DNA of 64,000 bases from Mesostigma viride (lineage: Eukaryota; Streptophyta; Mesostigmatophyceae; Mesostigmatales; Mesostigmataceae): positions 987,069-1,051,068 of the forward strand of contig RPFO01000253.1 in NCBI GenBank assembly GCA_009746045.1, given 5' to 3'. Positions 15,827 through 62,000 of the stretch are shown in pieces; the first letter of the stretch is position 1, and each line of letters starts with the position of its first letter. Under the pieces are notes generated by a model that was given only the letters and a program-made list of their open reading frames with translations, was not told where the DNA came from and ran no database searches. Made by a program: the position numbers and the translations under genes.

Positions 15827-16311
15827 GACTCGATCCAAGGGATGGATGTATCACCAACCCGGTATCACATCCTAAACTTTGCCGTTTTTACGCATGACGC
15901 GCCCGTAATGCCACGGGTTTGCCTACCCCATATGGCGCTATGGATATCATCGTTGACCCTATGGATATGGCCCTATGGATATCATTGTTGATTCTCTCAA
16001 CGCGTTGTACGCTGTCCTTGTCGTGCCATGGGCAGGATGTGCATCCACCCTGTACGACCCATCCAACCGTCCAACGCCGTGTATCCACCCACATTCATCT
16101 GCACTGCATGCCCGCTCCCTACCGGCTCGTCTGCCCTCCCTGCAGGATCCCCTGCCCTCCCTTGTGCCGGGCTCTCCACCCCCCCCTCGTGCCATACGCG
16201 AGCAGAAGCCCGACCATCCTAACCACCTTGTCCAGCCAACTGTACCTACCCTACACGCCTTTTACCCTGCCATGTATTTCTGCGCCCTCCCCTCGTGCTG
16301 TACGCGAGCAG
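15827..16311 (+). other. Array-to-exon transition, SRP54 intron 3' end
   Basis: The 78-bp repeat decays into unique sequence with a small internal repeat (CTATGGATAT motifs at 15939-15986). The segment then becomes pyrimidine-rich and ends in the acceptor ACGCGAGCAG before the SRP54 exon. A near-copy of that acceptor and the first exon bases lies at 16185-16216. No coding signal is seen. Confidence 0.6.
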
Positions 16312-16460
16312 AAGCCGGACCAGATCGTGTTTGTGATGGACAGCTCGATGGGCCAGGCGGCGTTCGACCAGGCCAAGGCGTTCAAGGAGAGTGTGGAGGT
16401 CGGGGCGGTCATCGTGACCAAGATGGACGGCCATGCCAAGGGCGGTGGCGCGCTCAGCGC
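16312..16460 (+). CDS. SRP54: SRP54 exon a: G4 region of GTPase domain
   Basis: Encodes [15 protein letters not shown] through [15 protein letters not shown], with the TKxD guanine-specificity motif. Ends in phase 2 at AGCGC|GTGAGT. Confidence 0.95.
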
Positions 16461-59000: not shown

Positions 59001-62000
59001 TGTAGGGTGTAGGGTGTAGGGTGTAGGGTGTAGGGTGTAGGGTGTAGGGTGTAGGGTGTAGGGTGTAGGGTGTAGGGTGTAGGGTGTAGGGTGTAGGGTG
59101 TAGGGTGTAGGGTGTAGGGTGTAGGGTGTAGGGTGTAGGGTGTAGGGTGTAGGGTGTAGGGTGTAGGGTGTAGGGTGTAGGGTGTAGGGTGTAGGGTGTA
59201 GGGTTCAGAGTGTAGGGTGTAGGGTGTAGGGTGTAGGGTGTAGGGTGTAGGGTGTAGGGTGTAGGGTGTAGGGTGTAGGGTGTAGGGTGTAGGGTGTAGG
59301 GTTCAGAGTGTAGGATGTCGGGTGTAGGGTTCAGAGTGTAGGGTGTAGGGTGTAGGGTGTAGGGTGTAGGGTTCAGAGTGTAGGGTGAAGGGTGTAGGAT
59401 GTAGGGTGTAGGGTGAAGGGTGTAGGGTGTAGGATGTAGGGTGTAGGGTGTAGGGTTCAGAGTGTAGGGTGTAGGATGTAGGGTGTAGGGTGTAGGGTTC
59501 AGAGTGTAGGGTGTAGGATGTAGGGTGTAGGGTGTAGGGTTCAGAGTGTAGGGTGTAGGGTGTAGGGTGTAGGGTGTAGGGTGTAGGGTGTAGGATGTAG
59601 GGTGTAGGGTGTAGGGTGTAGGGTGTAGGGTGTAGGGTGTAGGGTGTAGGGTTCAGAGTGTAGGATGTCGGGTGTAGGGTTCAGAGTGTAGGGTGTAGGG
59701 TGTAGGGTGTAGGGTGTAGGGTTCAGAGTGTAGGGTGAAGGGTGTAGGATGTAGGGTGTAGGGTGAAGGGTGTAGGGTGTAGGATGTAGGGTGTAGGGTG
59801 TAGGGTTCAGAGTGTAGGGTGTAGGATGTAGGGTGTAGGGTGTAGGGTTCAGAGTGTAGGGTGTAGGATGTAGGGTGTAGGGTGTAGGGTTCAGAGTGTA
59901 GGGTGAAGGGTGAAGGGTGTAGGGTGTAGGGTGAAGGGTTGGAGAGGCCCAACAAGGGATCACCCACGGAGCGCAGCGGAATGATTTCATTAAAAATGAC
60001 GCGCGCGAGCACGAGAGATGATGCCACCGCAGATGCCCACCGCGCCGCACCCCATGTCCCGTGAGCAACGCACGCGGCCTGGAAGTGACCCACCTTGCTA
60101 TACCACAGTGACCCGGTTGTCACTAGTATAGTGACCCCGCTGCCACTCCTTTAGTGACCCACCTTGCTGAGGTAGAGCAGCAGTATTTCCCACTTGCTCA
60201 GCTTGCGCTCGATGAGGAAGGCCAGCACGATCTCAGCCGCCTTGCGCGCCAGGTGGCGCTCATGCGTCAGAAATATGTTCTTGACCAGCTGTCTCCGGGG
60301 CCACAGATGGAGGACATGGGCAGGGGAAGGGTAGGGAGAGGGGCCTCAAGCGAGGAGGGAAGGCAACGGTGCACACGCAGGTGGCGGGCATTTTTCAACA
60401 GGTCAGTGGATCTGTCCAGTGGGAGAAGTCTTACCTGCTGTGTGATTCATCAACTCCACCTGGCCATCAACCCCAGGTGCTGCGGGATCACGCTGCTACC
60501 CGACCCCGACCACGGACCCCACCACGACCATGACTGCCACCGTAGGACCGCCACTACCACCCACCACCCCACCCACCTGGCCATCACCACCACCCCATCT
60601 GAAGACTGCGTGATGGTGCTGCCCTTGCCATCACCACCACCACCACCACCACCACCTGGCCATCATGCCCAACACCCACCTGCTCCATGACAGTGCTGCC
60701 CGATCCCCCCTCACCTGCTGCGTGATGGTGCTGCCCCCCCCGCTGTTGGACATCGAGAAGAGTGCGCGTGACAGGCCGCGGTAGTCAACGCCGCAGTGCT
60801 CGAAGAACCGTCGGTCCTCGCACGCCACCGCGGCCTGCCACATGGCGGAGGGAATGTCCTGCGGCCGCAGCAGGTGCCTGCACAGGGATACCAAAAGGGC
60901 CGTACAATCGAGTGGAATGGGGATGCCCAGTGAATTAGTTAGTGATGATGTCAGGGGATGTCCTGTGGCAGCAGCAGGTGCACGCACGTAGGGAGTCACA
61001 CACAAACCGAACGATGCAGAGGGCCAAACGATGCAGAGAACCTAACGATTGATGTTCCTTTCAACGCGTCAGAATGTGGCTACACGCATAAAAGGACTGA
61101 GCGAGGGCGGGTGTCCATATAATAGCTAGAATGCATTGAACACTGCAAGCTCAGTTTAAAGTATTAAAAATAGTGTTCTAGGTGAATGTGTGCACGAGTA
61201 AATGCGTGAGTGCGCGAGTGCGTGAGTGCGTGAGTGTATGAGTGCGTGAATGCGTGAATGCGTGAATGCGTGAATGCGTGAATGCGTGAATGCGTGAATG
61301 CGTGAATGCGTGAATGCGTGAATGCGTGAATGCGTGAATGCGTGAATGCGTGAATGCGTGAATGCGTGAATGCGCAAATGTGTGAATGTGTGAATTTGTG
61401 AATGCGTGAATGCGTGAATGTGTGAATGCGTGAATGTGTGAATGCGTGAATGCGTGAATGCGTGAATGCGTGAATGCGTGAATGCGTGAATGCGTGAATG
61501 CGTGAATGCGTGAATGCGTGAATGTGTGAATGTGAGAATGTGTGAATGCGTGTATGCGGGTATGTGTGTATGCGTGTATGTGTGAATGAAAACACATGTG
61601 CACTGAACTCGGTGCATGTGTGAATCTGTGCATGTGTGAATCCGTGCACGTTTTTGTTTCAAAGTGAATGTTTGCGGGGGAGTGGGGGGCCGGGGAAGGC
61701 AGGTTATCCTGCAGAACAGCTCATCGGCTGACAGAAACCTCCAGAAAACATTGCAAGGGCGCACTCTCTGACACAAGGGACTTGCACCTGGTAACCATCT
61801 GCGATAACACCCAGATGCAGGAAGCAGCCGTACTTCTAGTACTACTAGCCGTACTTCCAATACTACTAGCCGTACTTATAATACTACTAGCCGTACTTCA
61901 AATACATAACAAGGTATCTGAACACCGACTATTCCACAAGTCCCGCTGGATCCTGCAGCCCCCGGTCCATCCCAGCGGCTCCAAAAAAATTATCAATATG

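What the first reader, a model, noticed from the sequence alone, without database searches (positions are those of the whole stretch)
16185..60983. Splice-site echoes: exon-intron junctions copied into neighbouring introns in both genes
In at least a dozen places, the exon edge with its splice site (16-36 bases) recurs one to four times inside the adjacent intron. Donor copies: SRP54 exons b and d; PBP exons 2, 3, 6, 9, 15, 19, and more weakly 14 and 21. Acceptor copies: SRP54 exon a; PBP exons 2, 8, 10, 13. Copies are direct, usually 25-130 bp apart, and several become more degenerate away from the exon. Tandem duplication spanning AGGT is a known route to new introns. Here it seems to lengthen existing introns repeatedly and leaves decoy splice sites. 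I know of no description of such a systematic pattern, and it may be the seed of the larger satellites. How the cell chooses the right copy is an open question.
Basis: seen in the sequence. Interest (0 to 1): 0.92.

Follow-up and report, generated by a model that had tools for sequence, protein, structure and literature searches.

The report
Exon ends duplicated into their introns
In this genome, probably that of an alga, many exon ends together with their splice site have been copied by local tandem duplication into the start of the following intron, which lengthens introns and leaves decoy splice sites; similar structures are known from some lancelet genes.

Summary
The copies are real. In the window 7 of 25 donor-side exon ends have a copy in their own intron, against 0 of 600 pairings with other introns. 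In 22 further gene stretches of the same 440-Mb genome it is 30 of 156 donors against 7 of 3707 control pairings. Over 160 introns 34 donors (21%) and 10 acceptors (6%) have copies; 5.8% of ordinary intron positions do. So the donor effect reaches well beyond this window; acceptor copies exist but are no commoner than local duplication in general.

The youngest copies (6 of 6) are tandem arrays spanning the donor; of the older ones 5 of 23 keep the intron flank. Copies decay like non-coding DNA. Best explanation: tandem duplication across the 5' splice site, tolerated because the first donor still yields the right mRNA, then neutral decay. Use of that donor is inferred; no RNA was available.

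The claim of no earlier description fails: lancelet "mirages" are the same kind of structure. Frequency, donor bias and lineage seem new.

The parts
16312..20001 (+). SRP54 exons a-e: 16312-16460, 17335-17435, 18161-18318, 19096-19210, 19667-20001 (3' part of the gene)
   Evidence: open joined frame; best PDB match SRP54, E 6e-91
25768..63434 (-). class A PBP gene, 22 exons (exon 1 63208-63434 to exon 22 25768-26019)
   Evidence: open joined frame of 985 aa; Transgly and Transpeptidase domains
17446..17633 (+). four donor copies of SRP54 exon b: 17446-17484, 17511-17544, 17569-17586, 17598-17633
19362..19467 (+). two donor copies of SRP54 exon d: 19362-19403, 19431-19467
16186..16216 (+). acceptor copy of SRP54 exon a
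   Evidence: 28/31 identical
60953..60994 (-). acceptor copy of PBP exon 2
   Evidence: 35/42
60471..60701 (-). donor copies of PBP exon 2: 60677-60701, 60590-60624, 60471-60508
60084..60099 (-). donor copy of PBP exon 3, 16/16
42715..43088 (-). donor copies of PBP exon 6: two near-identical 92-bp tandem units (43040-43088, 42949-42975) and an isolated copy (42715-42741)
41309..41442 (-). acceptor copies of PBP exon 8: 41309-41329, 41418-41442
39395..39443 (-). copy of the intron start of PBP exon 9 (exon part weak)
   Evidence: score 37
39329..39369 (-). acceptor copy of PBP exon 10
   Evidence: 32/41
   Evidence: 32/44
35969..35984 (-). acceptor copy of PBP exon 13, 16/16, beyond the 11-bp satellite
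32912..32938 (-). donor-side copy of PBP exon 14
   Evidence: 22/27
31880..32008 (-). three donor-side copies of PBP exon 15: 31968-32008, 31926-31951, 31880-31925
30051..30074 (-). weak acceptor copy of PBP exon 17
   Evidence: 19/24
27643..27684 (-). donor copy of PBP exon 19, the strongest of the window
   Evidence: 39/42
26581..26599 (-). copy of the donor of PBP exon 21 (mostly intron side)
   Evidence: score 30

Best explanation
Short tandem duplications (offsets of roughly 35 to 250 bp in most cases) occur throughout the introns of this genome. When one straddles a 5' splice site, it puts a second copy of exon tail, donor and intron start just downstream, in the same orientation. The original donor still borders the intact exon and is transcribed first, so the normal mRNA can still be made and the duplication is tolerated; the intron grows, and repetition gives arrays. 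The copy then drifts as non-coding DNA. The exon part stays recognisable longest because its partner, the exon, is held constant, while the intron part is free to change in both copies. At acceptors the right copy is the last one made and the wrong one would be met first, so such duplications should be purged more often. Shown: the copies, direct orientation, whole tandem units at the young end, decay without codon constraint, recurrence in other genes, donor excess. Inferred: use of the first donor, purging at acceptors, and why donors exceed even a doubled background.
For: 7/25 donors vs 0/600; 30/156 vs 7/3707 in 22 other gene stretches, kinesin 24/130 and dynein 6/26 separately; direct orientation: reverse strand 0/25 and 0/125. 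Homology runs to the junction: exon -60..-30 has copies in 7/156 against 30/156 for -30..0. Flank homologous in 6/6 copies at <=3% divergence and 5/23 older ones, p 0.001. Arrays crossing the donor seen whole in L059, L056, L066 and PBP 6. Substitutions at codon positions 1,2,3: 48/375, 46/387, 73/386, as expected of a freely drifting copy plus silent change in the exon. Donors 34/160 vs acceptors 10/160, p 0.00014.
Against: 18 of 29 copies show no homologous intron flank, although 23 to 28 would be expected to under substitution and small indels alone, so fast turnover has to be added. The exon share of the unit is smaller than uniform breakpoints predict (KS p 0.0001). Simulated uniform duplication gives edges about equal to mid-intron, whereas real donors exceed even twice the background (p 0.0003), which the first-donor argument does not explain. 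Unmasked mid-intron windows were as often repeated as donors (192/1023 vs 22/125), because of satellites. Whole arrays cross only 8 of 171 donors, one of them doubtful. No RNA data.
Confidence: 0.68

Rival explanations
1. Short-patch copying: break repair or template switching pastes only the exon end plus a few intron bases into the intron, about 100 bp away, instead of duplicating a whole unit.
For: 18 of 29 copies lack a homologous flank; in 24 of 35 copies the strict extension stops within 12 bp after the donor (a strict method that also failed on one true array, L059).
Against: All 6 copies of <=3% divergence are whole tandem units. No inverted copies (0/25, 0/125), which such repair would also be expected to make (recalled). 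Copies of exon interior that do not reach the junction are rare.
Confidence: 0.15
2. No donor-specific process: ordinary local duplication, seen more easily at exon edges because the exon copy is conserved, with acceptor events removed by selection.
For: Local direct repeats are common across introns (5.8% of positions after correction) and flat with distance from the donor in introns without an echo; acceptors sit at that rate.
Against: Donors exceed 1x, 1.5x and 2x the background (p 4e-11, 9e-7, 0.0003); simulation with a conserved exon gives no excess.
Confidence: 0.1
3. The copies are kept by selection, as decoy or alternative splice sites.
For: GT kept in 25 of 33; some copied donors are as strong as the real ones.
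Against: Positions 1 and 2 of codons change freely; decoy use would shift the frame in 24 of 33 and bring a stop in 26 of 33, so no coding use. GT survival is about what the overall identity predicts (my estimate).
Confidence: 0.05
4. Chance, misannotation or assembly error.
For: Exons of the 22 further stretches are predictions of a small gene finder; 18 introns per-gene list show 8 of 22 stretches with no echo at all.
Against: 0/600 and 7/3707 in controls; copies differ from the exon by 0 to 26%, unlike assembly duplicates; the window exons give open frames with the right domains.
Confidence: 0.01

Closest known systems
Lancelet 'mirages': minisatellite-like tandem duplications of exon-intron boundaries (globin genes PMC3087553; PGBD5, PMC3902484; Adh and troponin C as cited there)
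   Same: Tandem units spanning a splice junction, many copies keep AG/GT, splicing reported as undisturbed, degenerate repeats in introns proposed as later stages.
   Different: Here the donor side dominates (34/160 vs 10/160), about a fifth of tested donors are affected, most copies are aged remnants, and the organism is photosynthetic. In lancelets both boundaries are reported; I have no frequency for lancelets.
Intron gain by tandem duplication of an AGGT-containing exon segment (Rogers model; PMC4974935, PMC2891723, passages)
   Same: Tandem duplication that duplicates a splice signal, protein unchanged.
   Different: There the copy makes a new intron at a new place; here it crosses an existing donor and lengthens an existing intron.
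Internal tandem repeats at human exon-intron boundaries in segmental duplications (PMC2812944, passages)
   Same: Minisatellite units at exon-intron boundaries change gene structure.
   Different: Reported in recent human paralogues, 27 intron changes, often alternatively spliced.
Introner elements (recalled, not read here)
   Same: A way to make intron sequence on a genomic scale.
   Different: Introners are families shared by many introns; here each copy resembles its own exon only (7/3707 matches elsewhere).

Membership tests
Mirages | tandem repeat units spanning an exon-intron boundary | tested here: met
   whole units in 6 of 6 youngest copies, 11 of 29 in all; arrays crossing 8 of 171 donors, one doubtful
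Mirages | copies carry splice signals | tested here: met
   GT kept in 25 of 33 donor copies
Mirages | both 5' and 3' boundaries affected | tested here: inconclusive
   single acceptor copies are clear but acceptors are not above the intron background (10/160 vs 5.8%)
Mirages | regular splicing undisturbed | not testable with these tools
   no RNA data; open frames only imply the first donor
Mirages | length instability between alleles | tested here: inconclusive
   the one second contig found (C622 vs C2) is 99.96% identical over 4688 bp, so it tells nothing about alleles
Rogers-type intron gain | copy of an exonic AGGT segment becomes a new intron at a new position | tested here: not met
   copies lie inside introns and cross an existing donor; age of the introns themselves not tested
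Introners | similar sequence shared by many introns | tested here: not met
   exon-edge queries match introns of other stretches in 7 of 3707 pairings

The most novel reading that the evidence does not exclude
The 5' splice site is itself a target: a transcription- or splicing-coupled process in this lineage duplicates exon tail and donor, so that introns grow largely from their donor end throughout the genome.
Probability: 0.2. Interest if true: 0.85.

Novelty: new variant of a known kind. Interest (0 to 1): 0.6.

Why it matters
Intron growth is mostly put down to transposons (recalled). Here a local route can be counted, aged and placed. About a fifth of the tested donors have a near-copy beside them, and some copies are as strong by matrix score, so this genome is a natural test of how a spliceosome chooses between near-identical sites and whether the first-made site wins. 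The donor-acceptor asymmetry makes that testable with RNA-seq alone.

Tried and rejected
(1) Donor-proximal hot spot of duplication: suggested by the window, not seen in introns without an echo in the larger set. (2) G content as cause: no difference between echo and other donors (p 0.69; GC skew p 0.08). (3) Coding use of the copies: no frame preference, 9 of 33 in frame, stops in 26 of 33. (4) Gradient with distance: absent in the window, moderate in the larger set. (5) Satellites grown from junctions: five consensus units tested, none similar. (6) Comparison of alleles: the second contig was nearly identical. (7) The unmasked mid-intron control (192/1023, as high as donors) is inflated by satellites; replaced by masking and by weighting with copy number. 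(8) The flank test was first run with divergences from trimmed alignments (9 of 26), then on longer alignments (11 of 29). (9) Viral contigs gave only bacterial-type PBPs, not used.

Rows dropped: introns under 150-200 bp, or over 2500 bp; predicted exons under 45 bp or with coding score under 8; L069 as a duplicate of L068; donor L074:2092, inside a 36-bp repeat, (kept in 64 and 69); alignments not reaching the junction. The gene finder at its first setting also made many tiny false exons (66 predicted where 25 are true); hence the later penalty and size limit. One search stopped with an error half-way; its rest ran.

Full report
What the window is. It lies in a eukaryotic assembly of 440 Mb in 2243 contigs (window = C667:987069-1051068). 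It carries the last five exons of cytosolic SRP54 and a 22-exon class A PBP. The genome has matches to kinesin (129), dynein heavy chain DHC_N2 (50) and chlorophyll a/b-binding protein (33), counted exon by exon, so it is probably a photosynthetic eukaryote. The species was not identified. Its size is near the 441.8 Mb published for Mesostigma viride, whose introns are long and rich in repeats (PMC6947507, passages); this is a lead only.

The copies are real. With only the last 30 exon bases as query, so that the splice consensus cannot help, 7 of 25 donors have a copy scoring >=24 in the first 500 bp of their own intron, against 0 of 600 pairings with other introns and 0 of 25 on the reverse strand; acceptors give 1 of 26 against 1 of 650. 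Junction-spanning queries give 19 copies at 9 of 25 donors (0.29 copies expected) and 6 at 5 of 26 acceptors (0.44 expected).

They recur elsewhere in the genome. A small gene finder, trained on the window exons and on intronless kinesin frames, found 23 of 25 true exons exactly in the window stretches tested (its own training set), together with many tiny false ones. With a higher penalty and a size limit it gave sensible kinesin motor domains in the 6 of 16 new stretches whose best translation I printed. In 17 kinesin and 5 dynein stretches, 30 of 156 donors have a copy, against 7 of 3707 pairings with other stretches, 54 of 1385 masked mid-intron windows, 7 of 156 for exon bases -60 to -30, and 9 of 157 acceptors. 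Kinesins (24/130) and dyneins (6/26) agree; 8 of the 22 stretches have none. After weighting for the multiplication of satellites, 5.8% (4.9-6.8%) of intron positions have a local copy; in the same 160 introns donors show 34 and acceptors 10. The donor excess survives doubling the background to allow for exon constancy (p 0.0003). Acceptors match the background (p 0.74) or fall below the doubled one (p 0.035). Without masking, mid-intron windows in the kinesin set were as often repeated as donors (192/1023 and 22/125), because satellites fill them.

How they arise. The clearest young copies are tandem arrays crossing the donor: L059 (about 85-bp unit), L056 (70 bp), L066 (34 bp) and PBP exon 6 (92 bp). 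The intron flank is homologous in 6 of 6 copies at <=3% divergence and in 5 of 23 older ones (p 0.001). That trend speaks for birth as whole units and later loss of the flank. Against it, 18 of 29 copies lack a flank where substitution and small indels alone would leave 1 to 6 without, so intron turnover must be fast or some copies are short patches. Copies are in direct orientation and mostly reach the junction.

What becomes of them. Differences from the exon fall on codon positions 1, 2, 3 as 48/375, 46/387 and 73/386, with 26 gaps against 167 substitutions (33 copies): the copy drifts freely while the exon changes mainly silently. GT survives in 25 of 33. Decoy use would shift the frame in 24 of 33 and bring a stop in 26 of 33. 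Some copied donors equal or exceed the real one by matrix score (SRP54 b, PBP 3, PBP 6), so the nine-base site alone does not choose.

Why donors. Inference: after a donor duplication the right copy is transcribed first, after an acceptor duplication last. First-come use of splice sites would spare the one and punish the other. This explains the asymmetry, but not why donors exceed a doubled background; simulated uniform duplication gives edges about equal to mid-intron. A donor-directed process is therefore not excluded, though I found no donor-side hot spot in introns without an echo and no G-content difference.

Place among known things. Tandem duplications of exon-intron boundaries that do not disturb splicing are reported in lancelet globin and PGBD5 genes, with Adh and troponin C cited, as mirages (PMC3087553, PMC3902484; passages). 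Tandem duplication across AGGT is a proposed and tested route to new introns (PMC4974935, PMC2891723; passages). Human boundary repeats: PMC2812944 (passages). The answered searches (open-licence papers, listings and passages only) showed no genome-wide frequency, no donor bias and no algal case. So the claim that nothing like it is described is wrong, while extent and asymmetry appear new.

Noticed in passing
449-15825, 33697-35909, 43897-50522, 51711-59939: Very long satellites (78, 11, 65 and 7 bp units); three of them fill introns of the PBP gene, and the 7-bp one has a GC skew near 0.95.
   Followed up: partly
33690 and 35969-35984: The same 16 bases of the acceptor of PBP exon 13 stand on both sides of the 2.2-kb 11-bp satellite, as if it had grown between two copies.
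   Followed up: partly
L058, donor 3592: A 19-bp satellite begins at the donor remnant of an exon copy.
   Followed up: no
about 20745-21690 and 21685-22620: Two similar blocks in tandem, each starting with an ATTGA repeat, seen by reading the sequence.
   Followed up: no
25768-63434: A nuclear, 22-exon class A penicillin-binding protein with both domains.
   Followed up: partly
introns of both genes: Introns are G-rich after the donor and C-rich before the acceptor.
   Followed up: partly
L068 and L069: Contig C622 repeats part of C2 at 99.96% over 4688 bp, probably a redundant contig.
   Followed up: partly
G000:C1457 and C1459: Five chlorophyll-binding protein matches with the same score in single open frames, four on one contig.
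   Followed up: no
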